This document shows, piece by piece, positions 29,153 through 49,387 of a stretch of DNA of 64,000 nt (positions are counted from its first letter, which is position 1; the number at the start of each line of letters is the position of its first letter). The stretch is from positions 372,001 to 436,000 of the forward strand of contig NZ_JAJSAP010000003.1 in assembly GCF_021729035.1 (NCBI RefSeq), written 5' to 3'. The notes beneath the pieces were generated by a model. It did no database searches. It saw only the letters and a program-made list of their open reading frames with translations, and was not told the origin of the DNA. Source of the DNA: Microbulbifer sediminum (GTDB lineage Bacteria; Pseudomonadota; Gammaproteobacteria; Pseudomonadales; Cellvibrionaceae). The position numbers and the translations under genes are program-made.

Positions 29153-30277
29153 ATGTCCCCAACCCAATTCCACCAGGCCGTCCTCAAATGGTTCGACCGA
29201 CACGGCCGCAAGGACCTCCCCTGGCAGCAGGACATCAACCCCTACCGGGTGTGGGTATCGGAAATCATGCTGCAGCAGACCCAGGTCACCGCCGTCATCC
29301 CCTACTTCCAGCGCTTTATGGCCAGCTTCCCCACCCTGGCAGACCTGGCCGGCGCCTCCCAGGACCGGGTCCTGGCCCACTGGAGCGGCCTGGGCTACTA
29401 CGCCCGCGCCCGCAACCTGCACAAGTGCGCGCAGACGGTGATGGAAGAACACGGCGGGGAATTCCCCCGGGACGTGGCGGCACTGGCCAGCCTGCCCGGC
29501 ATCGGCCGCTCCACCGCCGGCGCCATCGCCAGCATCAGCATGGGCATCAACGCCCCCATCCTGGACGGCAACGTGAAACGGGTACTGGCCCGCTACCACG
29601 CCGTGGACGGCTGGCCCGGCCAGACCAGCGTGGCCAACGAACTCTGGGCCCTGGCCGAGGCCTACACCCCGACAAAGCGCTGTAACGACTACACCCAGGC
29701 CATGATGGACCTGGGCGCCACCGTCTGTACCCGCAGCAAACCCAAATGCGACGCCTGCCCCCTGGCCGGCGACTGCGTGGCCCACGCCCAGGGCAACCCC
29801 CAGGACTACCCGGGCAAGAAGCCCAAAAAAGAGAAACCGGTGCGCCTGGCCACCATGCTGCTGCTCGAGTGTGACGGCGACCTCTACCTGGAACAGCGCC
29901 CGCCCAGCGGCATCTGGGGCGGCCTGTGGGTACCGCCGCAGCTGGAAGGCGACGACGGCGGGGAGGCCAGCGCCCAGGAATGGCTGGCCGCGCAAGATAT
30001 CCAGGCCGGCCAGGTCCAGCCCCTGCCACCCATGCGCCACACCTTCACCCACTTCCACCTGGATATCAGCCCGGTGTGGATCCAGCTGGCCGACCGGGCC
30101 AGCCTCGAAGGCGCCCGGGTGACAGAGCCCGGCGGCGACTGGTATAAACTGCGCCAGCTCAACCGCCCCCGGGCGGCACAGGACCTGGGCCTGCCGGCCC
30201 CGATCGCCAAACTGGCCAGGCAGCTGGACGCTTTCCGCGCCCCGCTACTGGCCCAGGAAGATGCCACCGTCCTGTAG
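29153..30277 (+). CDS. mutY: A/G-specific adenine glycosylase
   Basis: The 374-residue protein has the helix-hairpin-helix [12 protein letters not shown] (114-125), catalytic Glu37 in [11 protein letters not shown] and Asp138 in LDGNVKRV. Its four iron-sulfur cysteines are at 192, 199, 202 and 208. A C-terminal NUDIX-like 8-oxoG recognition domain (about 226-350) completes it. It removes adenine opposite 8-oxoguanine. yggX follows, the usual mutY-yggX pair of gammaproteobacteria. Confidence 0.97.
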
Positions 30278-30297
30278 GAGCGGCCGCTGGCCGCGAA
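30273..30297. repeat. REP-like element
   Basis: GGAGCGGCCGCTGGCCGCGA overlaps the last codon of mutY and fills the gap before yggX. Confidence 0.65.
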
Positions 30298-30353
30298 AAC
30301 CCACGGAAGACACGGCCACGGCAAAACCAAATAACCCAACCCCGGAGACCAAC

Positions 30354-30629
30354 ATGTCCAGAACCGTATTCTGTCGCAAATACCAACAGGAACTCGAAGG
30401 CCTGGACGCGCCCCCCATGCCCGGCCCCAAGGGCCAGGAAATTTACGAGAACGTCTCCAAGAAAGCCTGGCAGGAGTGGATGGCCCACCAGACCATGCTC
30501 ATCAACGAAAAGCGCCTCAACATGATGGAACCCTCCACCCGCACCTACCTGGCGGAGCAGCGCGACAAGTTCCTGAGCGGCGAGAGCTACGATGAGGCCG
30601 AAGGCTACGTCCCCCCGGAAGAGCAGTAA
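30354..30629 (+). CDS. yggX: Probable Fe(2+)-trafficking protein
   Basis: The 91-residue protein starts [21 protein letters not shown] with the conserved Cys7 and includes [20 protein letters not shown], the YggX signature. It protects iron-sulfur enzymes from oxidative damage. ATG at 30354 has CCGGAG upstream; the longer open frame from 30261 contains a REP-like repeat and is not coding. It is co-directional with mutY. Confidence 0.96.
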
Positions 30630-30815: not shown

Positions 30816-30891
30816 GCCCGGATAGCTCAGTCGGTAGAGCAGGGGATTGAAAATCCCCGTGTCGGTGGTTCGATTCCGCCTCCGGGCACCA
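30816..30891 (+). tRNA. tRNA-Phe (GAA), 76 bases with encoded CCA
   Basis: The acceptor stem GCCCGGA pairs with TCCGGGC, and the D arm contains AGCTCAGTCGGTAGAGC. The anticodon loop TTGAAAA sits within GGGGA/TCCCC and reads GAA. The T arm contains GGTTCGATTCC, and the encoded CCA is at 30889-30891. A terminator follows ten bases later. Confidence 0.97.
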
Positions 30892-30900
30892 TATAAAACA

Positions 30901-30931
30901 AGCCTCACCCGAAAGGGTGGGGCTTTTTTTA
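30901..30931 (+). terminator. Rho-independent terminator of tRNA-Phe
   Basis: AGCCTCACCC pairs with GGGTGGGGCT (one G-T pair) around a GAAA tetraloop and ends in seven T residues. Confidence 0.92.
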
Positions 30932-30956
30932 TATCTATGCCCGGAGTCCGGATGAC

Positions 30957-31119
30957 AAAACGCCGGGAGCGTTTTGGTCTGCCGAAGGCACCCGAAGGGT
31001 CAAATGCATGGATGCATTTGAGACAGTACCACCGCGGTTCGACAAATTGCGAAAGCAATTTGAAACAAGCGCGCAGCGCGAAGCCCGCCAGGGTCACAAC
31101 AGCCCCTAGGCTGTTGTGA
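30957..31119. repeat. Cluster of at least six short hairpins after tRNA-Phe
   Basis: Consecutive perfect inverted repeats are: AAAACGC/GCGTTTT (30957-30975), TGCC/GGCA (30980-30990), ACCC/GGGT (30990-31000), CAAATGCAT/ATGCATTTG (31001-31020), CAAATTGC/GCAATTTG with a GAAA loop (31043-31062), and an 11-bp stem TCACAACAGCC/GGCTGTTGTGA with a CCTA loop (31094-31119). The palindrome ACCGCGGT lies at 31031-31038. Open frames across it are by-products of the repeats and the tRNA. Function unknown; it separates the core genome from the accessory region. The rest of the 512-base gap to 31403 shows nothing recognisable. Confidence 0.7.
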
Positions 31120-31403
31120 TTATTCCGCCCGTCCACTGCCCGCGCGGCTGCCATAACCCTTTCCACCACCTACTCGACCAGACGCGGCGGCGTCGGGCAA
31201 CGAGCGCGATAGCGCGAATCCCACCGAGAACAGTCCTCCGCAAAACCTGCCTCTGTTACTTCCTCTTTAACCCCCATCTTCTTAAATAGGCGCAGACCGG
31301 AGCTACGGTTTTTCGCAAGAGCTTGCCAAAAGCCCGAATGGTTACAAATAAAGCAGATAGCTAATAGAATACTCAAAAAGAAACAATAAGGTATTAGGCA
31401 ACT

Positions 31404-32120
31404 ATGCCAATTCACACTAATGCCAAAAAGGGTTTGCTCTTCCTCAGTGTCATACTACTTGTATATCAGCTAGGGGATGGAAGGCCCACCAATCCAGAAG
31501 GGCAGATATCTTTACCTTATATACCGGTCACACTGGATAAGCCCGAAGTGATCGGCTACCTCATATGGCTTCTTTTCTTTATCTACTGGTGGAGATTCTA
31601 TCTGGACGGCAGGGCTGTCTGGCAAAACCTCAAGCAGTCGGTCCAATTTAGTGCAGCTCGCGACTCATTCTTTGGCAAATACATCAAGAGAGAGAAGGGC
31701 CTGATCGATACGGACCACGAGGTTTTTTGGATAGAGAGCCTCCACCTACATATCGATCGATTCCTATCGTCTTGGACGATCAACGCAACAATTGAACGTC
31801 GTGTACCAGTGCATGGACGATCCAGTGGTGTCACACTTAAAGGTGAAGCCAAGCAAGAATATGATTGCCAGTTTGGATGGCATTACACCTTTCATAAGAT
31901 TTGGTATCTATTTCAAAATGCCTTAACTGCCCGACAGTTTTTCGATTCCGCACTTCCCCATGTTATCGCCATAGCGACGCTATATGTGTGGCATAACTAC
32001 TTGCTTGCGAACTGGCCAAGAGAAATGATATTTGTCGGAATTATTGCAGCTGTGATTATATTCAGTAGAGGTGCTCAAGAGCTTACTGACTTTTTTGGGG
32101 CTTTTGATGAAAAGGGCTAA
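31404..32120 (+). CDS. Membrane protein of unknown function at the edge of the defence region
   Basis: The 238-residue protein has hydrophobic segments at about 9-20, 50-65, 183-198 and 206-222. Between them lies a soluble, aromatic- and His-rich central part of about 115 residues (DHEVFWIESLHLHIDRFL ... FGWHYTFHKIWYLF). GGTATTAGG precedes the ATG. Its GC content is far below that of the core genes, which suggests acquisition. No family was recognised. Two membrane hairpins flanking a cytoplasmic domain beside restriction systems make a defence role possible but unproven. Confidence 0.7.
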   Translation: MPIHTNAKKGLLFLSVILLVYQLGDGRPTNPEGQISLPYIPVTLDKPEVIGYLIWLLFFIYWWRFYLDGRAVWQNLKQSVQFSAARDSFFGKYIKREKGLIDTDHEVFWIESLHLHIDRFLSSWTINATIERRVPVHGRSSGVTLKGEAKQEYDCQFGWHYTFHKIWYLFQNALTARQFFDSALPHVIAIATLYVWHNYLLANWPREMIFVGIIAAVIIFSRGAQELTDFFGAFDEKG

Positions 32121-32282
32121 TCCGCCAAAGAGTCTACTTCTCCACTTCCAGACGATCCCTTTTTGCTTCATCTTGCCGAGTTACGACAAGATGAAGCAAA
32201 AAGAGAGTCTTGTGTAAAGATATCGTTTTACATGGTTTTACTTTTGCGCCAGGCGCACATTGGCTCAGCAAGCAAACCCCTA

Positions 32283-35200
32283 CTAAGCCAACTGATATTT
32301 TTTAAAATTCTCCGCCTGCTCAAAAATCTCCTTATAAACCTCATCCCGATCAACCGGCGGATACCCCTTCTTAGCCAGCACTAAGATCAGATCGACTTTC
32401 AGCTCCGCCTTAATGTCATCACGCTGATTCCAGTCCGTATACTTAGCCTTATCGTCCACCACCCCTTTTACTTCTTTCGAAAGCTCCAGGAGCTTATCCT
32501 CCGGATAGCTAAAGTCGTACTTGGCAGCCAACTTTTTCAGAATGTCGTAAAAAGCCTTCTCTTCCAGATCAATCCCGAGATCACTGAAGGATTCCTTCTC
32601 TTTCTTCAATGCCTGAATCAGGTCAATAATTTCCTCGGAGAAATCGTCGAGGACATTACTTACGAGCACATCATCTTCTTTGCGCTCGTTGTAGTGATCC
32701 ACCAGCTTGCGGAACTTCTCGGAGAAATCCATCCCCTTTGTTTTGTTGATCTTCTTGAAGTCCTCGATGGCCTGAGCCAGAAGCTTCTGTAGCAGCTTGA
32801 TCTTGGTATTGGGCAGTTTGATCTTCTCGATCTTGGCCAGGTAGTCGTCGGCGAAGATATCCGTCTCGCCGGATTCGTCTTCGCCCAGCTTGAATATCTC
32901 CTCCACTCCGTCGGCCTTCAGCGCTTCGGCGATCATCTCGCGCACGCGGGCGTTCATCTGCGCCACGTCGGGGGCGTCACCCTTGATGAGCTTGAACACA
33001 ATGGAGCGCACGGCAAGGTAAAAGTGGATTAGATCGCGTTCGGCCTGGTTGATGCGGTCGGAGCCACAACAGATGTCGTAAGCGGCCTTGAGGCGTTTTA
33101 CCAGCGCCATAAAGCGCTTTTCGATCTTGTCGGTGAGCTGCACATACTCGGCGGCCATATTCAGGCAGTTGAGCTGCTCTAGCGGGCTGCCAGTGAAGTA
33201 GGGCTTACTGTCGAACTTATGGAAGATCTTGTTCAGAAGATCTAGGTGATCCTTGACCACGATAACGGACTGGGCAATCTCCTCGATATTCTGCTGGTCG
33301 GCCTTGTTGTAGTGGGCCAGGGCCAGATTCATCTGCTTTTTGATGCCGATGTAGTCCACCACCAGGCCCTTGTCCTTGCCCTCGTACTTGCGGTTGACGC
33401 GGGAGATGGTCTGGATCAGGTTGTGGCGCTGGATGGGTTTGTCGATATAGATGGTATCAAGGAAGGGCACATCGAAGCCGGTGAGCCACATATCCACCAC
33501 AATGGCGATCTTGAAGTTGGACTTGGGGTTCTTGAACTGGCGATCCAGCTCCTTGCGGTACTCCTTGGTACCCAGCATGTCATAGAGCGCTTTGTCGTCG
33601 TCCTTGCCGCGGGTCATGATCATTTTGATCTGTTCCATGGGCTTGATCTCTTTGCGCTCCCTGTCGGTGAGCTCCGCGCCCTGTTCCGCGGCCAGCACCT
33701 CATTCCACTGCGGGCGCAGCGCGATCACTTCCTGCCAGAAGCGGTAGGCGATCTCGCGGCTGCTGCACACGAACATCGCCTTGCCCTTGATGGTGGCGCC
33801 CTCTTCTAGGCGCTGCTCGTAGTGGTGCACGAAGTCGCTGGCCAGCGCCTTGATACGGTCCGGGTCGCCGAGGATCGCATTCATATTGGCACTGGCCTTC
33901 TTGCTCTCCTCGATCTGGTAGTCGCTGGTGCCGGCCTCGGCGCACTCGGCGTAGTAGTCCTCGATCTCCCTGAGCTTGTCGTTGTCCAGCATCACCTTGG
34001 CGGCGCGGCCTTCGTAGACGATGCGCACGGTGATCTCGTCTTTTACCGACTCCGTCATGGTGTAGCTGTCCACCACCTCGCCGAACACATCCAGGGTGGC
34101 GTCGATGGGGGTACCGGTAAAGCCCACGTAAGTGGCGTTGGGCAGCGAGTCGTGCAGGTACTTGGCGAAGCCGTAGGTGCGCTTGACGCCCTTTTCGGTG
34201 ACGCGCACCTTCTGATCCAGGTTGATCTGGCTGCGATGGGCCTCGTCGCTGATACAGATGACATTGGCGCGCTCGGTCAGCAGCTCGGTGTCTTCGGTGA
34301 ACTTGTGGATGGTGGTGAGGAACACGCCGCCGCTGTTGCGGCCCTTCAGCAGTTGTCGCAGGTGTTCGCGGCTCTCCACGCTCACCACATGCTGGTCGCC
34401 GATATAGCCCTTGGCGTTGGTGAACTGGCCCGAGAGCTGGTCGTCCAGATCGGTGCGGTCGGTGATCAACACGATGGTGGGGCTGGCGAACTCCACGCTC
34501 TTCATCAGCAGGCGCGTCAGGAACAGCATGGTGAAGCTTTTGCCACAGCCGGTGGCCCCGAAGTAGGTACCGCCCTTTCCGTCGCCATCCGGTTTGCGGT
34601 GCCGCAGGATGTTCTGGTACAGCCGGGTGGCGGCGTAGAACTGCGGGTAGCGGCAGACGATCTTGTCTTCGCGCTTGGACACATCCGGGAAGTAGACAAA
34701 ATGCCGGATCACCTCGCGCAGGCGCGCCTTGTCGAACAAACCCTCTAGCATGGTGTGCAGGGCGTTGATGCCGTCCTGTTCGATGGTTTCATCGCCGGTG
34801 ACCTTGCGCCAGGTGTAGAAGAAGTCGTAGGGGGCAAACAGCGAGCCCATACGCGAGTTGACGCCGTCACTGATTACGCACAGGGCGTTGTATTTCATCA
34901 GCGCGGGAATATCGCGCGCATAGCGGCTGGTGAGCTGCTTCCAGGCATCATAGATGGTGGCGTTTTCGCGGATGGCGCTTTTGAATTCGAACACCACCAG
35001 CGGCAGGCCGTTGATATACAGAATGGCATCGGGGATGCGCTTTTCCGTGCCCTCGATTTCCAACTGGCCCACCACCCGGCAGATATTGCGCTCGTGGTAA
35101 TCCGGCAGCTTCTGCGCCACCAGCGTTTCCACCTCGCCCTCGGCGGGGATGCGCTGCTCCGGCAGCCCTGCGTAGTCGATCAGCTGGATATACAGGTCTT

Positions 35201-35501
35201 TCTTACTGCGGTCTTCGCGCTTTAACAGAAAGCCATCCGCTACGCGTTTGTGGATGGCCTTGTTACTGTCGTAGAGATCGGCGGCAGGCAGCCGCTCCAG
35301 TTCGGTGATCACTGCCTCGATTTCCGCCGGGGTGATGTTGTCATCCGCGTAGCGCTGGCCGAGAAAACGGCGCAAGTCCTCCTTGATCAACACCTCGGTG
35401 GGCGCGCGCTGTAGCTGGCCGCCGGGAGTATTGGAAAAGCCCTGCTGCTCCAGCAGGGCAATAATTGCCTTCTCTAATTTGTCTTCCGTGAACTTGGGCA
35501 T
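32283..35501 (-). CDS. hsdR: Type I restriction endonuclease, R subunit
   Basis: The 1072-residue protein has the N-terminal PD-(D/E)xK nuclease (Asp158 and FEFKS at 171-175, in PDAILYINGLPLVVFEFKS). The SF2 translocase follows, with Walker A GATGCGKS (315-322), SDEAHRSQ (418-425), VGFTGTPID and the motif VI-like QTISRVNR. A helical C-terminus binds the methylase core. All key residues are present, so it should be active. It is the last gene of hsdM-hsdS-hsdR, starting four bases after the hsdS stop. Confidence 0.96.
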   Translation of the reverse strand: MPKFTEDKLEKAIIALLEQQGFSNTPGGQLQRAPTEVLIKEDLRRFLGQRYADDNITPAEIEAVITELERLPAADLYDSNKAIHKRVADGFLLKREDRSKKDLYIQLIDYAGLPEQRIPAEGEVETLVAQKLPDYHERNICRVVGQLEIEGTEKRIPDAILYINGLPLVVFEFKSAIRENATIYDAWKQLTSRYARDIPALMKYNALCVISDGVNSRMGSLFAPYDFFYTWRKVTGDETIEQDGINALHTMLEGLFDKARLREVIRHFVYFPDVSKREDKIVCRYPQFYAATRLYQNILRHRKPDGDGKGGTYFGATGCGKSFTMLFLTRLLMKSVEFASPTIVLITDRTDLDDQLSGQFTNAKGYIGDQHVVSVESREHLRQLLKGRNSGGVFLTTIHKFTEDTELLTERANVICISDEAHRSQINLDQKVRVTEKGVKRTYGFAKYLHDSLPNATYVGFTGTPIDATLDVFGEVVDSYTMTESVKDEITVRIVYEGRAAKVMLDNDKLREIEDYYAECAEAGTSDYQIEESKKASANMNAILGDPDRIKALASDFVHHYEQRLEEGATIKGKAMFVCSSREIAYRFWQEVIALRPQWNEVLAAEQGAELTDRERKEIKPMEQIKMIMTRGKDDDKALYDMLGTKEYRKELDRQFKNPKSNFKIAIVVDMWLTGFDVPFLDTIYIDKPIQRHNLIQTISRVNRKYEGKDKGLVVDYIGIKKQMNLALAHYNKADQQNIEEIAQSVIVVKDHLDLLNKIFHKFDSKPYFTGSPLEQLNCLNMAAEYVQLTDKIEKRFMALVKRLKAAYDICCGSDRINQAERDLIHFYLAVRSIVFKLIKGDAPDVAQMNARVREMIAEALKADGVEEIFKLGEDESGETDIFADDYLAKIEKIKLPNTKIKLLQKLLAQAIEDFKKINKTKGMDFSEKFRKLVDHYNERKEDDVLVSNVLDDFSEEIIDLIQALKKEKESFSDLGIDLEEKAFYDILKKLAAKYDFSYPEDKLLELSKEVKGVVDDKAKYTDWNQRDDIKAELKVDLILVLAKKGYPPVDRDEVYKEIFEQAENFKKYQLA

Positions 35502-35505
35502 GGGC

Positions 35506-36874
35506 TTAAATCACCTCGGCAAGCTGCTGTTCCGCTTCGGGAACTTGAAGCTGCCCAGAGAGAAGTTTAGGCAGCAAGTAATCCCTCAATTCAACTAAAG
35601 TTCGCGTTTGTTCATGAGCATTAATCCATTGGCTAACAAGTTCGTTAGTCCTGGCAGAATACTCTTTTATTAACGCTTTTGATGGCGTAAGCCATCTAAA
35701 TTTATCAATATCTTTCTTACCAAGATGCGCAACAGTAGTCCCGACCTGAGAACTCTCCTCCCGCGCCAGAAGCGGCTTTAGCACCTGCTGTATAAGGAAA
35801 CTATTTGAATAACCGTTCACACACCGAGCTAAAAACAGCCGCTGATTTAACCAACCATCTTGACCCGACCATAATGTCGCTCGAAACTCAGCATCCATAC
35901 CGACAATGACATCTCCCGCTTTTATCAAAGTCCCTTTGGGGTGTTCCTCGGAGCTCCAAATTTGAGGCTTTCCCGTTTTCAAATCCCGTATCCTGATAAT
36001 CGGCTTTCCCAAAGCTTCGTCATTGAACAATTTAGAACTAAACGGAGCTCCATACACAACTTCAGTTAGCGAATATATAGAGCTAATTTCCCAACCCTCC
36101 GGAATCCAGCCTAACTGCTCATTAAATTCAAAACTGCTGGGGAACAGCTGCTGAAGCTCGGCCGGCAGCTTCTGCGCGGAAGCGCCGGCGGCGGTGCGCA
36201 GTTCTTGTCTGGCGCGCGCTCTGGCTTGTAGGGCATCGGGAATCGGGTCGCCGGCGGCAAGGGCGTTGTCGATGACCGGATAAAAATCCACAAACCAGCT
36301 TTTAAACAACGCCTGGGCCATGGATTCCAGGGTGGTGTTGATTTGACGGTTGAGTTCGATTTTTTTATCTATTGCTGAAAGAATAGCAACAATTTTTGAT
36401 TGCTCAGAAATAGACGGCAGCTTTACCTGCACAGTTTGTAAATCTGAACCTCGAATACCCGCCTGGCCTGCACCCTGTTCAGTAATATTCCATATTTCTG
36501 ATCTGCCGATTGGGCTGTTGAAGTAATAGTAAAGATATTCCGACAGGACTTGCTTTCTGTCTGGGCGAACACGAATTAAATGTGATTCAAAAACCGTTAT
36601 TTCATCATCACCCAAAAATATTGAGCACTTACCAGCACCAGAGAGCACCAGTGACTGCCTGGCAAACAGCAGGTCACCGGGTTCCATTGTTGAAGTTTGC
36701 AATTCTTTCTTTGTTGCGGGAACCCGATCGCATTCGATATTGAGCATTCGTCCATGGGCAAAGATTTCACCCATGTTGATGAATTTATAACCCTCGCCAC
36801 GAACTTTTTTTGGCTTTGTCAGGCCATTTCTTGAAGGTTCCGCGTATAGCTCGCCAAATCGAACGGTCTTCCAC

Positions 36875-36885
<11 letters not shown>
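35506..36885 (-). CDS. hsdS: Type I restriction-modification specificity subunit
   Basis: The 459-residue protein has two target recognition domains (about 1-150 and 260-420). They are separated by the conserved helical spacer with SEQSKIVAILSAIDKKIELNRQINTTLESMAQALF (about 158-192), and a partial repeat of the spacer forms the C-terminus (LVELRDYLLPKLLSGQL). An Ala/Arg-rich linker lies at about 210-235. Its base composition is AT-richer in the recognition domains, typical of swapping by recombination. It overlaps hsdM by 11 bases. The target sequence cannot be predicted. Confidence 0.95.
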
Positions 36886-38470
<1,585 letters not shown>

Positions 38471-38482
38471 TACTTTGTACAC

Positions 38483-39194
38483 CTTTGGCTGTTAGCGGGG
38501 CGCAGGCAGGCGGCACCTCGCGAAAATTGGTTAAATTTTCAGCAATTAATGCAAAAATTTGGAAGACTTTGATTCTGCCTGATTTGGCGGGGTATGTCTC
38601 CGTTGGCAGCCTGGGCTGAAGACAGCGGCGGATTCATGCATGAGTCCATGCTGCGAGCGGGGCGGAACTTACCGCGGCCTGGTGGCAAAGGGGGGCCGAA
38701 GTAAGACACAGGCATCGGGGAGACAGGCTAGGGGAGGCGATGCCTCGCATGAAGCGGGCTAGGCGAGTCTTGTGGCCAACGGCGGTGCGTGGCGGCCATG
38801 CCCGCCGTATCGAATAGCAGACCGGTAATGGAACTGTTAGATTAGCCGGAACTAAAAGCAATAATGACAATGTGATGCCTGACACCAAGCTCTTTGCCGT
38901 AGCGGGCTCCTCCGTGACCGCCCATGGCGCCCCAGTCATAGGGTCTCGCCTCGATCAGCCAGCACACATCCTACCTGCCTATCCCTGCCCTATCTGTACA
39001 CTTTTTAACCGCGGGAAGAGCTTGTCGGCACTGGGCCCACTCCCAAATGGCTTATACATCCAAGGCAGAGCGTGGCTTAACGGCGTCTTCAACAAGTTAG
39101 CATTGACTCACAGGCCAACAGGTCACCTGGGAAATTAAGACAACCGGTCCAATAAGCAAAAGAAGATAACCAAGAGATTTTAGGCCCACCCACT
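38483..39194. other. Intergenic region between hsdM and mcrB
   Basis: About 710 bases lie between the divergent hsdM and mcrB genes. It must hold both promoters; an AT-rich stretch lies near 38520-38560. An 88-codon frame at 38872-39138 has no ribosome site and no recognisable domain, so it is not called. No integrase, tRNA or repeat was seen. Confidence 0.5.
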
Positions 39195-41228
39195 ATGAAT
39201 GAAGATCTGCAGAGCCTTTATCAAGCACACATGCAACGCACGGGCGACAATTGGACCCCACGGTACCGCGAGCGCTGCGAGTTTCTCCGCACAATCGACC
39301 CCAAGACATTTGACTGGTCCGATAATGGCTTTCTCGAGGCCTATTGGCGCGAGCGCGATAACGGCATCGCCGGTATTGGCTCCGGCATGCTAAGCCATGA
39401 AGAATTTGAGAATATCCGCGACGAACTGCCGACGATTAGTAAGGAAATATTTTTAGCTCCTACAGCTGCTACTCTAGACTCCATGATGCAGTGGCTCGAA
39501 GAATGTAAGAACGCTGGCAAGTTGAAGTTCACAAAGAAAGGGGTCCTGCGTCGCTTTTTCTGCGCCTGCGACCCTGACAACCTGTCCACTATTGTAAAGA
39601 CATCAGATCTAAAGAGGTTTGTTCGGAATTGGAACCGCTCCGGGTATGGACCAAGGGTAGAGCTCACTGATAACTGGGTGACGCTTAATCACAATGTGAT
39701 GCAGGCGATCAGATCCTCCGGTCTACAAAAAGAAGACGCTTACGATGTGAGCACATTCGCATGGCGCCTGGCTGAATACTTTAACGACCCGAGCATAAGC
39801 TCTTTGATTCGAGGGGCCTCCCATACACTTAACGTACAGGTGAATAGCCGGAATCAGATTGGATCGAGAGCTCCGCTTAATCAAATACTCTATGGTCCCC
39901 CAGGTACAGGTAAAACCTACAGCACAATCGAGAAGGCGGTCGCAATTATTGATCCCGATTGGGTTGCTTCACTCGATGATGACAAAGAGGCATCCGCTCG
40001 ACGAAAACTCATCAAGTCTCGCTATGACGAATACGTAAAATCAGGACAGATTGCCTTCACAACATTCCATCAAAGCTTCAGTTATGAAGACTTTGTCGAG
40101 GGTTTGAAAGCGGATTCTGAAGATGGACAACTAAACTACTTCGTAGAGGATGGCATCTTCAAGACTATCTGCCAACGCGCAGATAGCGATACTCAAATCT
40201 ATGACCTGGACGCAGCTATTACCGACTTAAAGACACAGTGCTCGGAGGAGCCGTTGCGGCTCACCACCGCTACCGGCAAGGCCTTTTCGGTAAGTTACCG
40301 GGGTGGAAAGACATTCCGCTGCCTTCCAGGCGCCTCAACTGAAAAGCGTGACCTGCCAGCCAATGTGCAACATGTGCGCAAAGTCGCCCTTGGTGAAACA
40401 CCAGACAATCTCTATTGTGCAAGCTATGTCCGGGCAATTGCCAGGCACATTAATAGTAATTACTCATTAGATAGTAATAGCGAAGCAGAGCAGAGGGATT
40501 CTGCACCACATGTTCTAATTATCGATGAAATCAACAGGGGAAATATCTCCCGAATCTTTGGGGAATTAATCACGCTACTTGAAGCCAGCAAGAGGAAGGG
40601 CGAATCAGAGCAGCTATCGGTAACTTTACCGTACAGCAAGGAGACCTTCACTATCCCAAACAATCTCTATGTGATAGGAACAATGAATACTGCCGATAGC
40701 AGCCTGGCCAAAGTGGATATCGCTCTTCGTAGACGGTTTAGCTTTGAAGCCTGCTTACCAAATTCAAATCTCTTATCCGAACTTATCGTAGACGGCATCA
40801 ATGTAGGAAGGGTCCTGGAGACAATAAATAAGCGCATAGAAATCCTGTTTGACAGGGATCACTGTATTGGCCATAGCTATTTCATGAAACTGAATAAGGA
40901 TAGCGACGTATACGACTTGGCGAAAATTTTTGGGGATAGCATATTGCCATTACTGGAGGAGTACTTCTTCGACGACTGGGAGATGATCCACCGAGTATTA
41001 GGTGACCATCTAAAGGCGCACGAGGAACTACGATTCATCATTGAAAGATTCAGTAATTCTGAATTGCGCTCACTGCTTGGCGACGACTGGTTAAATGACG
41101 TACAAACTAAAAACCAATGGCATCTTAATCAAGCCGCACTATATATGCCTGAGGCTTATATTGGAATCTACGACAATAACCTGAACACCGTCGACTATGT
41201 CGAAGAAACGGCCCTGGATATGGCCTGA
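39195..41228 (+). CDS. mcrB: McrB-type GTPase of a modification-dependent restriction system
   Basis: The 677-residue protein has a 200-residue N-terminal domain unlike the methylcytosine-binding domain of E. coli McrB. The AAA+ motor follows: Walker A GPPGTGKT (234-241), Walker B with DEINR (444-448, in LIIDEINRGNISRIFGE) and the McrB signature MNTADSS (497-503). GTP drives translocation and, with McrC, cleavage of modified DNA. The N-terminal domain decides which modification is read and is unassigned here. mcrC starts two bases after its stop. Confidence 0.93.
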   Translation: MNEDLQSLYQAHMQRTGDNWTPRYRERCEFLRTIDPKTFDWSDNGFLEAYWRERDNGIAGIGSGMLSHEEFENIRDELPTISKEIFLAPTAATLDSMMQWLEECKNAGKLKFTKKGVLRRFFCACDPDNLSTIVKTSDLKRFVRNWNRSGYGPRVELTDNWVTLNHNVMQAIRSSGLQKEDAYDVSTFAWRLAEYFNDPSISSLIRGASHTLNVQVNSRNQIGSRAPLNQILYGPPGTGKTYSTIEKAVAIIDPDWVASLDDDKEASARRKLIKSRYDEYVKSGQIAFTTFHQSFSYEDFVEGLKADSEDGQLNYFVEDGIFKTICQRADSDTQIYDLDAAITDLKTQCSEEPLRLTTATGKAFSVSYRGGKTFRCLPGASTEKRDLPANVQHVRKVALGETPDNLYCASYVRAIARHINSNYSLDSNSEAEQRDSAPHVLIIDEINRGNISRIFGELITLLEASKRKGESEQLSVTLPYSKETFTIPNNLYVIGTMNTADSSLAKVDIALRRRFSFEACLPNSNLLSELIVDGINVGRVLETINKRIEILFDRDHCIGHSYFMKLNKDSDVYDLAKIFGDSILPLLEEYFFDDWEMIHRVLGDHLKAHEELRFIIERFSNSELRSLLGDDWLNDVQTKNQWHLNQAALYMPEAYIGIYDNNLNTVDYVEETALDMA

Positions 41229-41230
41229 CT

Positions 41231-42568
41231 ATGGTGCCTTATATTGTTCGGGAGTATGGACTGCTATCTCGTTCGGCCGAGGTACGGTTGGAGCAGAACC
41301 CAATTGATCGCCAGGCGATACCGGCCTCGGCTTGGGACTGGCTATTAGCGGAATGTTGCGGAGATGGGCTGCACAAGCAGCTGGTGCGTCCTCGCAAGGT
41401 AGGCGGCAGTGTCTACCTACAAGTGCTTAATTATGCCGGAGTAATCACTACTCCGTGTGGGACGCAGCTGGAAATCGTGCCTAAGAGCTTCGCTAGCAAC
41501 AACTGGTTAGCACTGGCTCGCGGACGCAAAGTTCTTCTAAAGATGCTTAACCGAGTTTACGACCTTAAAGTACGCGAGTTTGATCTAGGCAACTTAGAGC
41601 TATTCGATGGTCCGCTACACGAGATATTGATTGGCCACTTTCTAAACGAAGTAAAGGCGCTTATCCGGCAGGGCGCGCGGTCGAGCTATCGAGACAACAT
41701 GTCCGAGCTTTCCTTCTTACGCGGCCGACTGCGAACCTCCGATCAGCTTCGACAACCACCTTCACGCCAGCATAAGTTTCAGGTTGAATATGAGGAGTTC
41801 TCTCGAAACCGGCCGGAGAACCGCCTAATTCGGTCATCTTTGGCGCATGCGTTGAAGTGGTCGAAAATCACGGCAAATCAGCGTCTAGCTCGGGAGCTTA
41901 TATTTGCTTTCGACGATATCCCTACGTCGAAGGACACCAAAGCGGACTTTAGAAAATGGCAAAGCGACCGCACAATGCAACATTACAAACCTCTAAAGTA
42001 TTGGTGTGAGCTTATTCTCGAAGAGAGGAATCCACGAATGCTGGCGGGGAAACACTTTGGCCAGTCATTCTTGTTCCCTATGAATGAGCTTTTCGAGCGT
42101 TATGTTGGCTCAGTACTCCGCAGCCAATTGCGGCCAGGTTTTGAACTTAAGGAGCAAGCATCTAGCAAGTATTTGATTGAATCCTATAGCGGAAAACCTG
42201 CATACCAGCTGCGGCCCGACATATTAATCCTCAATAATAAGCGATTTCACTCAGTCTTGGATTGCAAGTGGAAGATTCTCTCTCAGTCGAGCACATCACG
42301 ATTTAGGAGCAGCGTAGATGACGCAACCGCTAGTCAAGGTGATCTCTATCAGCTTTTTGCCTACGGCCATAAGTATTTAAACGGGGAGGGGGCTACCTAT
42401 CTCATTTACCCCCATCAGCCCGGCCTTGAATTAGTTTCCGAGCCAATGGAATATTCAGATAGACTGCAAGCGTTCATGATTCCGTTTGACTTAGAGACCG
42501 ATAGGTTCTGCGGTCTTCCGCCGGACTTCATGACAACTCCTAATATCGACTTATCCGTCTCAAATTAA
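41231..42568 (+). CDS. mcrC: McrC nuclease subunit
   Basis: The 445-residue protein has an N-terminal McrB-contact region (about 1-120). A C-terminal PD-(D/E)xK nuclease follows, with Asp near 329 in RPDILIL and DCK (about 343-345) in SVLDCKWK. It cuts DNA after stimulation of McrB GTP hydrolysis. It is coupled to mcrB. GC content is lower than in the surrounding core. Confidence 0.93.
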   Translation: MVPYIVREYGLLSRSAEVRLEQNPIDRQAIPASAWDWLLAECCGDGLHKQLVRPRKVGGSVYLQVLNYAGVITTPCGTQLEIVPKSFASNNWLALARGRKVLLKMLNRVYDLKVREFDLGNLELFDGPLHEILIGHFLNEVKALIRQGARSSYRDNMSELSFLRGRLRTSDQLRQPPSRQHKFQVEYEEFSRNRPENRLIRSSLAHALKWSKITANQRLARELIFAFDDIPTSKDTKADFRKWQSDRTMQHYKPLKYWCELILEERNPRMLAGKHFGQSFLFPMNELFERYVGSVLRSQLRPGFELKEQASSKYLIESYSGKPAYQLRPDILILNNKRFHSVLDCKWKILSQSSTSRFRSSVDDATASQGDLYQLFAYGHKYLNGEGATYLIYPHQPGLELVSEPMEYSDRLQAFMIPFDLETDRFCGLPPDFMTTPNIDLSVSN

Positions 42569-42622
42569 CAGTAAGTTTTTTTCGATGCCAGAAGCCACAA
42601 ACTTCTGCCCTGGGCGCATTTG

Positions 42623-43417
42623 CTAACTGCCTGTCAAGGCATCGCGAGGGGCGAATATCCAGCCTTCGGCAGCCGGCGTAGCCTCATCCGGCTGGTACAA
42701 GGCCTCAGGCTGAAAGTGGTAGAGCCACGCCACCAGGGCGCAGAGGAGCGCATCGCGCTTGTCCTCGTGGTTAATGCCGAACCTATAGCCTGTTGTGTGC
42801 CAAGTATCGGCCTGAGTATTAGCTACTGCATTGCGATAGGGCTGCAACAGCTTCCGGACCAGGGCCGAGGGCTTACAGGCGGCCGGGTAGGCTTCGATTG
42901 CTGTGAGGGTGTTGCCACTGGTCCAAACGCCTGTGGCGGGGTTCTCGGGTGCGAAGCGGGCCAAGGCATGCATGCCCTTGGTGGCCTGGCTGCCGATCAT
43001 GTCCTTGACTGGTGACAGCGGCGTCAGGCCACGCTGGAATAGCATGCGCTCGGTGTGACGGAACAGATAGGGGTTGTCCGCAGATGCCCCGACCGGGCCT
43101 GCCACGCCATCGCCAGCAATCAACTGCCGGAAGGCTTGTGAGAAACCCAGTGGAGTGTCGATGGCCAGTGTTGCGGTTACCGAGTTGTCGGGCACCTCGA
43201 GCTGACAGCACTCCAGTAATGCCCGGATCCACTCCCGCGTATCGCCGGCCTCGTTGATCACTTTGCGCAGGTTGCCACGCCACGGCTGACCGAGGATATT
43301 ACGCTTGCTGTCCAGCACGACCAAGGCATCACGGCTGTTGGCGTTGCGGTCACAGTTCCAACCGCCAACATCCCAGCCGATAAACAGGGGGCAGGAATGA
43401 GTAGTCTCGAGTATCAC
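42623..43417 (-). CDS. DUF429 protein (predicted RNase H-like fold)
   Basis: The 264-residue protein starts FIGWDVGGWNCDRNANSRDALVVLD and continues with TLAIDTPLGFS, ATKGMHALARF, TAIEAYPAA and HEDKRDALLCALVAW. This spacing of acidic residues is that of DUF429, predicted to be RNase H-like and often found near restriction systems. It converges on mcrC with only 54 bases between stops. Function unproven. Confidence 0.75.
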   Translation of the reverse strand: MILETTHSCPLFIGWDVGGWNCDRNANSRDALVVLDSKRNILGQPWRGNLRKVINEAGDTREWIRALLECCQLEVPDNSVTATLAIDTPLGFSQAFRQLIAGDGVAGPVGASADNPYLFRHTERMLFQRGLTPLSPVKDMIGSQATKGMHALARFAPENPATGVWTSGNTLTAIEAYPAACKPSALVRKLLQPYRNAVANTQADTWHTTGYRFGINHEDKRDALLCALVAWLYHFQPEALYQPDEATPAAEGWIFAPRDALTGS

Positions 43418-43854
43418 ATCGGAACCTTGTTAGCTGCGCATCAACCGATTACAGGTAGAGTTCATACTCTCGTAGGGCTTGTGAAGCATTTATTTTCCTT
43501 CTTATTATTCAAGGCCGGCCCAGCCACTCCCCGCAACGCTTGGAACTCCAAGCAATAAGGGCAGATTAATACTCGCGCCACGGCAACGCAATTCTGTGAT
43601 TGAAGTCACTTCATATTGTTAGAGCATGCCCGTTTTCACTGCATGAACGCCAATCCAGGGAACACCTGTGTTACTGAGCGGATCCAAGTGTCCACGAGAT
43701 TAGCGGAAACCAGTGTTGATTCAGCTCAAATTAAGGTTGAATTCCGTAACCTCCGCCACAAGCTTCATTCGTAAGGCAGCTGTGGCATTGCACTGAGCTG
43801 TAATTACGAATAGTTATAAAACTTTACGTTCCTCCAACCATAAGGAGCCTGACT
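43418..43854. other. Intergenic region, end of defence block
   Basis: About 440 bases contain no open frame worth calling. I looked for a copy of the tRNA-Phe 3' end that would mark an island boundary and saw none. AAGGAG at 43842-43847 serves the next gene. Confidence 0.45.
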
Positions 43855-44352
43855 ATGAAAAAGGCAATCCCGTATCTGGTAACAAGCCTCGTACTATCCG
43901 CCCCGGCTCTGGCCCAGCAGCCCGACGCCGCCGGCAAGGAGATGAAGGAAACCAAGATCCCGGCCGAGGCCCAGGCCCGCATGGACGAGAAGCGCGCCAT
44001 GGCCGAACAGAAACGCATGATGGCGGAGCAACAGCGACTGAAGGCCGAGCAGATGCGTGAGGAGGCCATGGAAGAAGGCAAAGTCTCGGAAGAGAAGCGC
44101 ATGGAAGGCAAGAAAAAGCGCATGATGGCCGAAAAGAAGACCGAGATGATGCACGACGAGCACATGATGGCCGGGAAGAAGGCTGAAATGATGCACGACA
44201 AGCACATGAAAGGCGCCAAGGACAACAAGGGCATGACCAAGCAGGCCGAGAAGAAGGCCGGGCAGGAGCGCAAGGAACTGGGCAAAGGCTCCGAGCAGGG
44301 CCAGGCGGCCCGCGAGGAGAACAGCAAGAAGTGGTGGCAGTTCTGGAAGTAA
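43855..44352 (+). CDS. Exported Met/Lys/Glu-rich helical protein
   Basis: The 165-residue product has a signal peptide (MKKAIPYLVTSLVLSAPALA). The mature protein is almost wholly charged helix with many Met: repeated blocks of type EQKRMMAEQQRLKAEQ and an imperfect duplication EMMHDEHMMAGKKA/EMMHDKHMKGAKD (about 100-126). It ends KKWWQFWK. Long coiled coil is likely. Met/His clusters could bind copper or another metal in the periplasm; that is speculation. Strong AAGGAG ribosome site. Confidence 0.75.
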   Translation: MKKAIPYLVTSLVLSAPALAQQPDAAGKEMKETKIPAEAQARMDEKRAMAEQKRMMAEQQRLKAEQMREEAMEEGKVSEEKRMEGKKKRMMAEKKTEMMHDEHMMAGKKAEMMHDKHMKGAKDNKGMTKQAEKKAGQERKELGKGSEQGQAAREENSKKWWQFWK

Positions 44353-44521
44353 GCGCCACCTAACCGTGGGGGTCGCCGCTGAGGCGGCCCCTTGCCCTCA
44401 ACTCAGATGACTCCAAATCTGTCCACTCCTATCTGGGTGACCAAGTATGGGCTGCCAATTAGTCCCGGACTAGGCAAGCGTTTCTGTGGTGACGCACTGT
44501 AACCATGAAAGACATATGAGA

Positions 44522-45964
44522 TCAGGGCTCCGAGGCGTCCAGCTCAGCCAACAAGTCGACCGCCTCCTTGGCCTGGGCATCGGTGTGCGCCCAGTTGACC
44601 ACCCGGTTTAGAAAAAACCGCGCGTCCTCCTTCAGGCCTGCCTTCATCGAATATTCTCCCGCCAAGATATTAGCCGGCAGACTCACAGGGTTCAGTTCGA
44701 GTATCCGTGCGATTTCATTCATCGCCGATTGTTTTCGACCTAGCGCCCAGTAGGCTTCGACCATCAAAGCACTCGCACCATAAAGCGCCTCTTGCTCTCG
44801 TGCGATTTCCAGGTGCTTCAGAGCTTCCGCAAGCAGTGCCTCGCTACTGTCAACTCTCTTTTCCGCAAGATCCAGCAGTGCATGCCCGAGGTAAGCATGG
44901 CCTGCACCGCTCAACGACGGGGCTTCTATAAGCCTCTCGATCAGCTTCTCTTCCTGCCCTACTTCCTCCGACGCATGGCCCTCGATAATGGCAAGCGCCG
45001 CACGACCCTCGCCATCAATCGAATCCTCATATTCGCGCAGCAGATCTCCGGCATATTCCCACTCACCTATGGCAACCGCCAGCCGGACCTTTACATTGAT
45101 CTCATCCCGAAGACTAAGCTCGTTAATGTCTATTTCGGGTTTGAGTTCGCTTACTGGTATGGAGAGAGCGTTCCATTTTCTCTTTGCCGCATAGCGGCGA
45201 AGATCGTTGTATACAGCCTTTGCATCCACACCCAGTTCTTCGAAGAGTACATCCGCATTCCTTTCTCCTTTGGTGTACCGCAGAAGATAGCGTTTGAAGG
45301 GCGCAGAGTAATCATCCATCCCATTCGCGGCGCCCAATATCATCCGGTGGGCGAGCAACCATGCAGCGGCATAAAAGCGCGCCGTATATCGGCCATCCTT
45401 AAACAACTCCCCGGGTTCAAGCAGGTGCTCTACTGGCAGCATTGCATAGTAATCCAGCGCGCTGCGCCGACTGTGCGGCACACCTCCAATGATCGCACTT
45501 CCGTCACTGAATTCCAGCGTTGAGTAAAAGTCAGCCAGTCCCTCGCTATACCAACGTGGATACACGAAGTGGCCCATTCTGTTGGTGAGAAAGTGAATAT
45601 ATTCATGGAAGAAGATCTCGTCCTTTCCACTGGGCCCCACCACCATCAACGGGTACCCCAGGCGGTCTCGATAGAACCCGGCGATGCTATTTTTCCGCGT
45701 AAACTTGCGCAGCGTCCACTCACTCTGGAACAGATAAATCTCAAAAGAGACAGCTTCTGTACTTTTCGGGATTGAGAGTAGCTTGTGGATAGTCGCCTTG
45801 AACATTTCAAAGCGCCGGATCTTTTTAAGGACGCTTTCTTCGGAATAGTCCGAATAAACAATAAAATTATCTGACTCATACTTTCGCCACGTAGACGCCG
45901 CAATTTCAGAGGCGGAGAGACAGATCAACAGGGCCGTGGCCAGCATTTGCGTTGTTGCCTTCAT
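44522..45964 (-). CDS. Secreted gluzincin-like metalloprotease with helical repeats
   Basis: The 480-residue product has a signal peptide (MLATALLICLSASEIAAS). Its zinc-protease core has HEYIH (about 120-124) and the third ligand Glu in RWYSEGLADFY (about 141), the HExxH...E layout of peptidase MA-like proteins. A TPR-like helical second half (about 260-475) probably binds partners or substrate. The ATG at 45964 has GGAAGGA at the right distance; a TTG nine bases earlier is less likely. Substrate unknown. Confidence 0.8.
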   Translation of the reverse strand: MKATTQMLATALLICLSASEIAASTWRKYESDNFIVYSDYSEESVLKKIRRFEMFKATIHKLLSIPKSTEAVSFEIYLFQSEWTLRKFTRKNSIAGFYRDRLGYPLMVVGPSGKDEIFFHEYIHFLTNRMGHFVYPRWYSEGLADFYSTLEFSDGSAIIGGVPHSRRSALDYYAMLPVEHLLEPGELFKDGRYTARFYAAAWLLAHRMILGAANGMDDYSAPFKRYLLRYTKGERNADVLFEELGVDAKAVYNDLRRYAAKRKWNALSIPVSELKPEIDINELSLRDEINVKVRLAVAIGEWEYAGDLLREYEDSIDGEGRAALAIIEGHASEEVGQEEKLIERLIEAPSLSGAGHAYLGHALLDLAEKRVDSSEALLAEALKHLEIAREQEALYGASALMVEAYWALGRKQSAMNEIARILELNPVSLPANILAGEYSMKAGLKEDARFFLNRVVNWAHTDAQAKEAVDLLAELDASEP

Positions 45965-46312
45965 TGGCGCCAATCCTTCCGTGTTTTAGTTGTAGTTCCG
46001 GAGCCTTGAACAATCGGCGTATCATTCCACCTGTAGGTGGCCAACCCCATCTGCAGTGGTCGTCATTATTCTTCGTACAAGTTAGTCAAGAGAGCCCTGT
46101 ACTGCAATTCCAACTCCCCCATTACGCGGTCGCCTCCGTACTATCCCTGCTATCCGTACTATCCGTGCTATAGGGAGTCTATGCCCCAGACGACGTCCTG
46201 CTGAAGCCCTTCTTCTTGTTTGGTTCTTTGTCGCCCTCACCGATCCCTGTCTTTTCCTTCTCCTCCCCCACCGTGCATACTCCCCTCACACTGGAACTGC
46301 TGAGGACGCACC
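45965..46312. other. Intergenic region
   Basis: About 350 bases lie between the divergent protease and VOC genes. A short imperfect repeat of CTATCCGTA-like units occurs at 46137-46172. No gene, RNA or terminator was recognised. Confidence 0.45.
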
Positions 46313-46747: not shown

Positions 46748-46865
46748 TGTACTGGGGTGAAGGGTAAGCTCGTCGCCCAAGGGCCTGAACTTTGCGCCCG
46801 TGTGGACTGGGGGCTTTGTGGCTGCCTGAATGCCGGCGTCAGCTTCGCTGCTCCGGCGAACCGCC

Positions 46866-46929
46866 GGTCTGCCGGCCCAGCGGTCTGCCGGCCCAGCGGT
46901 CTGCCGGCCCAGCGGTGTGCCGGCCCAGC
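46866..46929. repeat. Four tandem copies of a 16-bp unit
   Basis: The unit GGTCTGCCGGCCCAGC occurs four times head to tail; the last copy has one change (T to G). It lies between two converging genes. Each copy contains the palindrome GCCGGC. Confidence 0.85.
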
Positions 46930-46950
46930 GGGATGACGCGAGGCGAAGGA

Positions 46951-47514
46951 CTAGCCGGCGATACGCTGGAACAGGCCCGCCAGCTCGTCGAAGCGGGAAA
47001 ACCGGTGCCCGCCGTCCTCAAATAGGATGGGTTCGATATCGCAGTGGCCGCGGAGCATTTCCAGGGTCCGCGTGCTGTCCAGCACCTCGTCATCCATGGC
47101 GAGAACATGGGTCACCAGCTTGCCGGTGTCCTTCACGGCATAGTCCCGGGTCGCTTCGAGATCTTCTGGGGAGACAGTGATGGTCTCGTCAGAACCATAC
47201 ACTCCGTAAGTGCCCGGCTGCAGGGATTGCCAGGGTCGCATGGAGGGATTGATCGCCACCCCCGGCACCCCGAACCTGCAGGCCGCCCAGCGGCTCCAGA
47301 AGCCACCGAACGAGGTTCCCGCGAAGGCGACGATATTGTCCGCCCCGTGCTCTTCCACCACGCGTTTCAGGGTGGCTGCGGCAATGGCCGGGTGGTGCGG
47401 CTGGTAGTCCAGCCCGACCACCTCGATGCCCGGCAGGGCGCTACGGAGGGTTTCAACCTTGGCGGATTTGCCGGGCAGGCTGCGGAAGCCGTGGAGGTAA
47501 AAAAGATAGCGCAC
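46951..47514 (-). CDS. yqiA: YqiA-like esterase
   Basis: The 187-residue alpha/beta hydrolase starts MRYLFYLHGFRSLPGKSAK. It has nucleophile Ser68 in GTSFGG, a likely acid in MDDEVLDS and the His in DGGHRF. This is the UPF0227/YqiA type of short esterase. The symbol rests on overall pattern only. Confidence 0.8.
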   Translation of the reverse strand: MRYLFYLHGFRSLPGKSAKVETLRSALPGIEVVGLDYQPHHPAIAAATLKRVVEEHGADNIVAFAGTSFGGFWSRWAACRFGVPGVAINPSMRPWQSLQPGTYGVYGSDETITVSPEDLEATRDYAVKDTGKLVTHVLAMDDEVLDSTRTLEMLRGHCDIEPILFEDGGHRFSRFDELAGLFQRIAG

Positions 47515-47646
47515 TTGTGTATTTCCTGTTTATCCGTTGGTTGAACTTGCTATCTCACAGTACCGACGAGCGCGCCTGCCCCTTTCTTGATGTAGGTTTT
47601 CGACAGGCCACTGCTTAGTATGCTCTCGGGATATTCTGCCAATCAG

Positions 47647-47931
47647 TCAAATTCTCCACAATATCTTCTCTCCGTAAAGTATCCGCGCCAATAACCGCAG
47701 CAAAACGATCACACCCATCGATAATAATGCCATCCATGAAAATATTTTGGCTGTCTTATCGCTATCGAATACGACGAGCAAAAACCAGACAGCTATCTCT
47801 GGCCCTATAATTAATAGCTTCCTAAAATAATTACAAAATACTTTTTGAGAATGATAAACAAAATATGCGTATACCGCGGAGACAGAGCCTAACTCTTTAA
47901 CGTGGCGCTTCAGTTTGCCAGAACAAGGCAC
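47647..47931 (-). CDS. Small membrane protein, unknown
   Basis: The 94-residue product has two hydrophobic segments (about 40-54 and 63-84) after a basic, aromatic N-terminus. It begins with GTG and a weak ribosome site. It lies in AT-rich sequence and may be a recent acquisition. Coding status is uncertain. Confidence 0.4.
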   Translation of the reverse strand: MPCSGKLKRHVKELGSVSAVYAYFVYHSQKVFCNYFRKLLIIGPEIAVWFLLVVFDSDKTAKIFSWMALLSMGVIVLLRLLARILYGEKILWRI

Positions 47932-49347: not shown

Positions 49348-49387
49348 CCTCCGATCATAATAAGTTCTATCTGAAGCGAGATATGAA

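What the first reader, a model, noticed from the sequence alone, without database searches (positions are those of the whole stretch)
30816..43417. Defence island next to tRNA-Phe
Directly after tRNA-Phe the composition becomes AT-richer and the genes are an unknown membrane protein, hsdMSR, mcrBC and DUF429. Restriction clusters beside tRNA genes are a known integration pattern. No integrase or duplicated tRNA end is visible, so the island may be old or exchanged by homologous recombination.
Basis: partly seen in the sequence, partly recalled or inferred. Interest (0 to 1): 0.55.

Follow-up and report, generated by a model that had tools for sequence, protein, structure and literature searches.

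The report
Swappable defence island beside tRNA-Phe
Next to a transfer-RNA gene, this bacterium keeps an exchangeable set of anti-phage genes; related species carry different sets, or almost nothing, in the same gap, whose tRNA side is lined by small folded repeats of a kind that carries copies of the tRNA's own end.

Summary
The two nearest species break similarity at the same borders (about 31.2 kb and 43719) yet hold other cargo: Ssp; another type I system with Druantia III. Three species have near-empty sites. The window's HsdR is 94% identical to copies at other loci of two species whose MutY is 74% identical, so it moved horizontally. This is a tRNA-bordered defence hotspot, a known kind. 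Unexpected: the tRNA border is an array of decayed tRNA-linked repeats (TLRs), a class known from E. coli. Their folded core covaries; 100 of 293 genomes of the order have matches; 143 of 163 top-scoring copies inspected lie within 1 kb downstream of a tRNA, and intact ones end in that tRNA's own 3' end. In two relatives an attL-like sequence abuts the TLR's tRNA-end copy instead of the tRNA. How cassettes are exchanged remains inferred.

The parts
30816..30891 (+). tRNA-Phe(GAA), left anchor and known type of integration target
   Evidence: found after yggX in 47 of 47 relatives
30897..30935 (+). intrinsic-terminator-like hairpin with T run after tRNA-Phe
   Evidence: sequence by eye
30936..31129 (+). 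decayed tRNA-linked repeat (TLR-like) unit 1: inverted copy of the tRNA-Phe 3' end (30936-30955), a nested second core (30956-31027), then T-arm plus multi-hairpin core ending in part of the tRNA 3' end (31028-31129)
   Evidence: nhmmer; R1 hit 117 bits at 31020-31132; arms by eye
31165..31233 (+). degenerate second TLR unit
   Evidence: (30.3 bits at 31160-31245)
31234..43718 (.). variable cargo segment (12.5 kb); both sister species hold different DNA between the same borders
31404..32120 (+). 238-aa membrane protein, orphan (no Pfam, PADLOC or NCBIfam family at E 0.001; 3 weak matches in the other 292 genomes of the order sample)
32283..35501 (-). HsdR, type I restriction subunit, all domains present
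   Evidence: 94% identical copies in G017 and G006 at other loci
35506..36885 (-). HsdS specificity subunit
36875..38482 (-). HsdM N6-adenine methyltransferase
39195..41228 (+). McrB-like AAA+ protein
   Evidence: Pfam AAA families; NCBIfam McrB at 119 of 637 bits
41231..42568 (+). McrC-like endonuclease subunit
   Evidence: Pfam McrBC E 1e-91
42623..43417 (-). PDC-S44 candidate defence protein (weakly DUF429-like); 74% identical protein in G022 at the same locus, with other type I-like genes
43719..44352 (+). right anchor: conserved 136-bp leader and hypB (43855-44352), a small protein with a signal-peptide-like start, rich in Lys and Met (by eye)
29153..30629 (+). mutY and yggX, fixed left flank in the genus

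Best explanation
The stretch between tRNA-Phe (with its TLR array) and hypB is a lineage-wide exchange site. In this species it is filled by a 12.5-kb defence cassette. SHOWN by sequence: fixed left anchor, shared borders in two sister species, different cargo, near-empty sites, foreign composition, horizontal origin of the hsd genes. INFERRED from the protein families: the type I enzyme methylates its own site and cuts unmodified incoming DNA, McrBC cuts DNA carrying modified cytosine, and PDC-S44 is a candidate defence gene, so the cassette guards against phages and plasmids. INFERRED for exchange: mobile elements with tyrosine integrases land at the tRNA-Phe 3' end, or at the copy of that end carried by the downstream TLR; they lose the integrase, and later cassettes are swapped by homologous recombination between mutY-yggX-tRNA-TLR on one side and hypB on the other.
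For: yggX in 48 of 48 genomes; mutY and tRNA-Phe beside it in 47 of 47 fetched relatives. Identical cargo borders in G047 and G046, with flanks near the borders at about 80-94% DNA identity. Defence families in the cargo of the window and six relatives, partial scans: window type I + McrBC + PDC-S44; G047 SspB/C/D (2 of its 8 proteins matched nothing); G046 type I + DruE3/DruH3; G005 MzaB-E + C5 methylase, G012 type IV + Orf5/HEC-06-like, G013 a weak JukB match, G022 PDC-S11 + PDC-S44, with type I-like genes by tblastn only. Near-empty sites of 449, 706 and 736 bp in G020, G008, G014. HsdR 94% aa and about 90% nt identical against MutY 74% aa in the same species pairs. GC 0.525 against 0.655. 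Integrase genes within 3 kb of tRNA-Phe in six relatives. The attL-like 181-182 bp after tRNA-Phe CCA in G032, G026, G017 follows the TLR's tRNA-end copy in G022 and G006.
Against: No integrase among the cargo proteins, no tRNA-end copy and no shared border repeat mark the window's own cassette, so how it arrived is not shown. Recombination tracts in the flanks were not tested. Not all cargo need be defence: the 7-kb cargo of G006 was not scanned and its ORFs look like secreted proteins. hypB homologues at the near-empty sites are only 38-42% identical and of low complexity, so the right anchor is weaker than the left; hypB was seen in 15 of 48 genomes within the DNA fetched.
Confidence: 0.85

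Rival explanations
1. The cassette is the remnant of one integrative element that entered at the tRNA-Phe 3' end, then lost its integrase and one attachment repeat.
For: Integrase genes start 66-96 bp after tRNA-Phe in G004, G032, G026, G017, and tRNA-end duplicates lie downstream in five relatives: G035, G024, G004, G022, G006.
Against: In the window the TLR units, which lie beyond the far tRNA-end copy of islands in G004, G006 and G026, still sit directly after tRNA-Phe, so nothing is inserted at the tRNA end itself; no tRNA-end copy within 3 mismatches in 64 kb.
Confidence: 0.25
2. Vertical inheritance: an ancient resident restriction locus that most relatives lost.
For: 18 of 47 other genomes of the genus have a related HsdR (E <= 1e-30).
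Against: The five most similar (69-94%) are at other loci, and those at this locus (G029, G045, G022) are only 31-34% identical; the 94% copies are in species with 74% MutY identity; the sister species hold other DNA of similar length.
Confidence: 0.03
3. The TLR array is a chance set of hairpin repeats and has nothing to do with the tRNA or the island.
For: The window's own copies are decayed and lack the full tRNA-end copy; model R1 does not score the E. coli TLRs; in 80 (right end) and 88 (left end) of 143 copies the own tRNA is not the strictly best match.
Against: 143 of 163 inspected copies lie within 1 kb downstream of a tRNA on the same strand, first copies 34-88 bp away, mostly 43-75; the own tRNA is strictly best at the right end in 63 and at the left end in 55 of 143, against 7 and 9 in wrong-orientation controls; the helices covary, score 0.310 against 0.112 for shuffles.
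Confidence: 0.02

Closest known systems
Core defense hotspots cDHS1/2 of Pseudomonas aeruginosa (PMC10250203, passages seen)
   Same: Diverse defence cargo between fixed core genes, a non-coding RNA gene (tRNA-Pro or tmRNA) in the flank, very variable size, and 29% and 47% of sites without a detectable mobile gene.
   Different: Here the flank is mutY-yggX-tRNA-Phe, the comparison is between species, and the tRNA side is a TLR array.
E. coli defence-island hotspots, 18 of 41 within tRNA loci (PMC10121019, passages seen)
   Same: tRNA-linked position, variable defence cargo; its hotspot 37 mostly lacks a detectable mobile element.
   Different: Most E. coli cases are assigned to a mobile element; none is seen here.
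E. coli tRNA-linked repeats, TLR / rttR / rrA-rrB-rrF (PMC8144298, passages seen; sequence compared)
   Same: Downstream of a tRNA or 5S gene, tandem; by eye an inverted part-copy on the left, T-arm, hairpin core with a CCCG-AGGG mini-hairpin; a 3' end identical to the upstream RNA's 3' end (intact copies here; exact at 178-bp spacing in tyrV).
   Different: The window's copies are decayed; R1 gives no hit in E. coli, and a search for a full-length inverted copy in tyrV within 5 mismatches found none. Here copies follow 13 tRNA amino-acid types and occur in 100 of 293 genomes of the order and in some outside the class.
Type I RM and McrBC
   Same: Complete HsdRMS; McrB/McrC pair.
   Different: McrB and McrC are far below NCBIfam's equivalog cut-offs (119 of 637, 82 of 338 bits), so modified-base specificity is unknown.

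Membership tests
Defence hotspot between core genes (cDHS-like) | Same flanking core genes in relatives | tested here: met
   yggX 48/48, mutY and tRNA-Phe 47/47 relatives; right flank hypB seen in 15/48 only
Defence hotspot between core genes (cDHS-like) | Different defence systems in the same gap | tested here: met
   window and six relatives, partial scans (G022 type I by tblastn); other cargos not scanned
Defence hotspot between core genes (cDHS-like) | Variation between strains of one species | not testable with these tools
   one genome per species is held
Integrative island in a tRNA gene | Integrase gene at one end | tested here: not met
   Pfam on the seven cargo proteins, no integrase; present in six relatives
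Integrative island in a tRNA gene | Duplicate of the tRNA 3' end at the far end | tested here: not met
   none within 3 mismatches in the window; no exact repeat of 9 to 14 bases shared by the border zones
tRNA-linked repeat (TLR) | Lies directly downstream of a tRNA or rRNA gene, same strand | tested here: met
   44 bases lie between tRNA-Phe and window unit 1; 143/163 copies within 1 kb
tRNA-linked repeat (TLR) | 18-19 bp at the 3' end identical to the upstream tRNA's 3' end | tested here: not met
   window unit 1 keeps only ATTCCGCC (by eye); elsewhere 29/143 copies reach 16 of 17, including G022's copy at this same tRNA. Hence the window units are called decayed, TLR-like
tRNA-linked repeat (TLR) | Similarity of the core to E. 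coli TLRs | tested here: inconclusive
   same order of parts by eye but no R1 score
Type I restriction-modification | HsdR, HsdM, HsdS with complete domains | tested here: met
   activity not tested
McrBC type IV restriction | McrB AAA+ and McrC nuclease side by side | tested here: met
   NCBIfam equivalog thresholds not reached
DUF429 (PF04250) | Pfam gathering score | tested here: not met
   14.1 of 23 bits

The most novel reading that the evidence does not exclude
The repeats bordering the island and the E. coli TLRs (including the one between the rrnB terminators) are one widespread family of tRNA-templated elements: a small multi-hairpin core set into the T-loop of an inverted-plus-direct copy of the host tRNA's own 3' end. 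By offering a second copy of the tRNA end about 100-150 bp downstream, they divert tRNA-targeting integrases from the tRNA and so seed integrase-free, exchangeable cargo gaps such as this defence island.
Probability: 0.25. Interest if true: 0.75.

Novelty: new variant of a known kind. Interest (0 to 1): 0.5.

Why it matters
The P. aeruginosa paper leaves open whether core defence hotspots are common in other clades, and the E. coli paper says that for many islands the mode of mobilisation could not be determined. This locus gives a cross-species case with borders, near-empty sites and a traceable donor pool for one system. If the TLR link is real, a repeat class known in E. coli since 1978 (citation seen), and described in 2021 as without known function before three rRNA-operon copies were shown to be small RNAs, becomes a widespread, structured family with a testable role at tRNA integration sites.

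Tried and rejected
Rfam 15 was scanned for the repeats at gathering score (only tRNAs) and with looser thresholds (tRNAs, and sub-threshold matches to leaders and small RNAs, taken as chance). Border repeats of the cassette: none found. Literature: (listings); passages opened in PMC8144298, PMC2267715, PMC10250203, PMC10121019 only. Of these only PMC8144298 describes the repeat class. In what I saw nothing links it to islands or describes it outside enterobacteria; one listed paper with a single 'rtT RNA' mention (PMC2658671) was not opened, and only open-licence text is held. Integrase screening by phmmer was narrow and was repeated with an iterated profile: 6 of 26 TLR-less relatives against 0 of 21 TLR-adjacent relatives carry one within the DNA held; five loci are under 5 kb and the species are related, so I do not lean on it. 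The membrane protein led nowhere.

Limits of the counts: order, class and phylum model searches scored only 12-13 candidates per genome, genus 78, so copy counts are lower bounds; each tally includes the own genome. The 163 copies inspected were taken from the top of the hit lists, not at random. The tailoring test used the 143 linked copies and includes tandem copies (118 loci: own tRNA strictly best at the right end in 54, left in 44); ties were 14 (right) and 26 (left). In the covariation count four of five measures exceed nearly all shuffles, but the number of further pair types does not (19 against 19.7 in shuffles), the structure was drawn from one sequence, and related rows inflate such counts.

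Full report
CHECK. Pfam covers HsdR (HSDR_N, SWI2/SNF2, C-terminal domain), HsdM and HsdS; McrC matches Pfam McrBC at E 1e-91; McrB matches only AAA families and, weakly, NCBIfam McrB. The 'DUF429' protein is below Pfam's cut-off but is a strong PADLOC PDC-S44. The membrane protein has no Pfam match better than E 0.08.

SAME PLACE IN RELATIVES. The window lies in a 3.85-Mb genome (G000); the search covered 48 genomes of the genus, one per species, the own one included. yggX is found in 48 of 48. I fetched the DNA after it in the 47 relatives (42 stretches of 17.7-20 kb, and 5 of 1.7-4.7 kb at contig ends): mutY, yggX and tRNA-Phe stand together in 47 of 47. In these stretches no hsd or mcr gene of the window has a counterpart above 46% identity.

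BORDERS. Against the two nearest species, G047 and G046 (flanks near the borders about 80-94% DNA identity), similarity stops in the repeat array after tRNA-Phe (31129-31222) and resumes at 43719 in both. Between lie 12.5 kb here, about 14.9 kb in G047 and about 18.7 kb in G046, with no DNA similarity at E 1e-10 to one another; G046's HsdR and HsdM are distant homologues at 23-28%. The resumption point is the leader of hypB (43855), whose homologues stand 0.45-15.4 kb after tRNA-Phe in 13 relatives and further in G046. In G020, G008 and G014 the gap is 449-736 bp and holds one to three repeat units: near-empty sites. Caveat: hypB is of low complexity and 38-42% identical there. Beyond hypB there are two more variable gaps, 44.4-46.3 and 46.8-50.1 kb. 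No exact repeat of 9 to 14 bases is shared by the two border zones, and the repeat finder shows none joining them.

CARGO. PADLOC finds SspB, SspC, SspD in G047; a different type I system with DruE3 and DruH3 (Druantia III) in G046; MzaB-E and a C5 methylase in G005, a type IV enzyme and an Orf5/HEC-06-like protein in G012, a weak JukB match in G013, PDC-S11 and PDC-S44 in G022. G022 also has type I-like genes by tblastn, not scanned with PADLOC. These are seven cargos including the window; the others were not scanned, and G006's looks different. The window's HsdR is 94% identical over 1067 aa (about 90% in DNA) to proteins at other loci of G017 and G006, whose MutY is 74% identical; HsdS there is 41-43% identical and HsdM, where seen, 94%. 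Its McrC has no relative above 38% in the genus (4 of 47 other genomes match).

THE REPEATS AT THE tRNA SIDE. Directly after the tRNA terminator a multi-hairpin repeat occurs in 22 of 48 tRNA-Phe loci (nhmmer), up to three units in tandem. A covariance model from 24 copies finds matches in 32 of 48 genomes of the genus (E 0.01), 100 of 293 genomes (46 of 118 genera) of an order sample (E 0.01), 31 of 274 of a class sample and 20 of 299 of a phylum sample (E 1e-4); the samples overlap and each includes the own genome. Of 163 copies whose surroundings I held, 143 lie within 1 kb downstream of a tRNA on the same strand, first copies 34-88 bp away, after Phe, Ser, Arg, Met, Val, Leu, Lys, Asp, Pro, Tyr, Glu or Gln tRNAs; of nine further loci from the phylum search seven have one, Asn among them. 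Of the 18 loci without a tRNA in place, most show a tRNA-end remnant, a contig end, a tandem array or a tRNA gene interrupted by the core; L166, L168, L221 and L252 show nothing that I recognised, and L151 and L182 are doubtful (by eye). In L174 and L185 the core lies inside the T-loop of tRNA-Cys gene copies.

ANATOMY. Left end: inverted copy of the tRNA's 3' end. Then T-arm 5' strand and TTCGA, three hairpins and a CCC/GGG mini-hairpin, then the tRNA's T-arm 3' strand and, in intact copies, acceptor strand and CCA. The own tRNA is the strictly best match at the right end in 63 and at the left end in 55 of 143, against 7 and 9 in wrong-orientation controls; 29 copies reach at least 16 of 17; in the remainder the ends are decayed or do not distinguish tRNAs. 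The helices pair in 95.0% of cells with covariation 0.310 (shuffles 0.112; slid versions 0.013-0.066); one of five measures, the number of pair types, does not exceed shuffles. Folding z-scores of ten copies, chosen mostly for well-kept ends, run from -2.5 to -7.4; the window's is -2.7. In the window, unit 1 holds a second core nested in its inverted arm, and unit 2 is degenerate.

WHAT THEY ARE. E. [quoted passage not shown] the 2021 paper says they had no known function and shows three to be small RNAs that bind Hfq and CsrA (PMC8144298, passages). The K-12 tyrV and rrnB copies show the same order of parts by eye, although the model does not score them and a script found no full inverted copy in tyrV within 5 mismatches. 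I therefore call the window units decayed, TLR-like.

LINK TO ISLANDS. In G032, G026 and G017 an attL-like stretch (my label) and a P4-type integrase gene start right after tRNA-Phe CCA; in G022 and G006 the same stretch (76-85% identical over 181-182 bp) starts after the TLR's copy of the tRNA end, with no integrase in the DNA held. In G004, G006 and G026 a tRNA-end copy, terminator and TLR lie at the far side of an island. So integrase elements do use this tRNA end, and in two species the join is at the TLR copy. An alternative reading of G022/G006, that the element brought the TLR along, is not excluded.

VERDICT. A tRNA-bordered defence hotspot, well supported; of a known kind. The repeat border is the less ordinary part; its function is open. 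Committed mechanism: integrase entry at the tRNA or TLR copy, loss of the integrase, then swapping by homologous recombination (this order is inferred, about 0.45 likely).

Noticed in passing
30956-31027: A second, different multi-hairpin core sits inside the inverted arm of TLR unit 1; by eye the same arrangement occurs in G047, G046, G020 and G026.
   Followed up: partly
L174 and L185 around 1501-1607: The TLR core is inserted in the T-loop of tRNA-Cys gene copies; intact tRNA-Cys genes lie nearby in the same loci.
   Followed up: partly
L279 (E. coli rrnB, after 5S): The stretch between the rrnB T1 and T2 terminators has, by eye, the same parts as the TLR core; it is the published rrB small RNA gene.
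   Followed up: partly
44397-46312 and 46838-50138: Two more gaps downstream of the island whose genes (a 483-aa protein with weak TPR match, a YqiA-like esterase and several hypotheticals) do not align in the two sister species; also low in GC.
   Followed up: partly
50836-53022 and 53489-55708: Two tandem large paralogues, laminarinase/GH16-like by eye (not tested), kept in both sister species.
   Followed up: no
L050 and L120 (G004): A TLR about 39 kb from tRNA-Phe, with two integrase genes and, by eye, a serine resolvase gene between.
   Followed up: partly
L287 (G006) 18765-19016: An HsdR N-terminal fragment, 79% identical to the window's over 84 aa, in the same 20 kb as a full hsdR.
   Followed up: no
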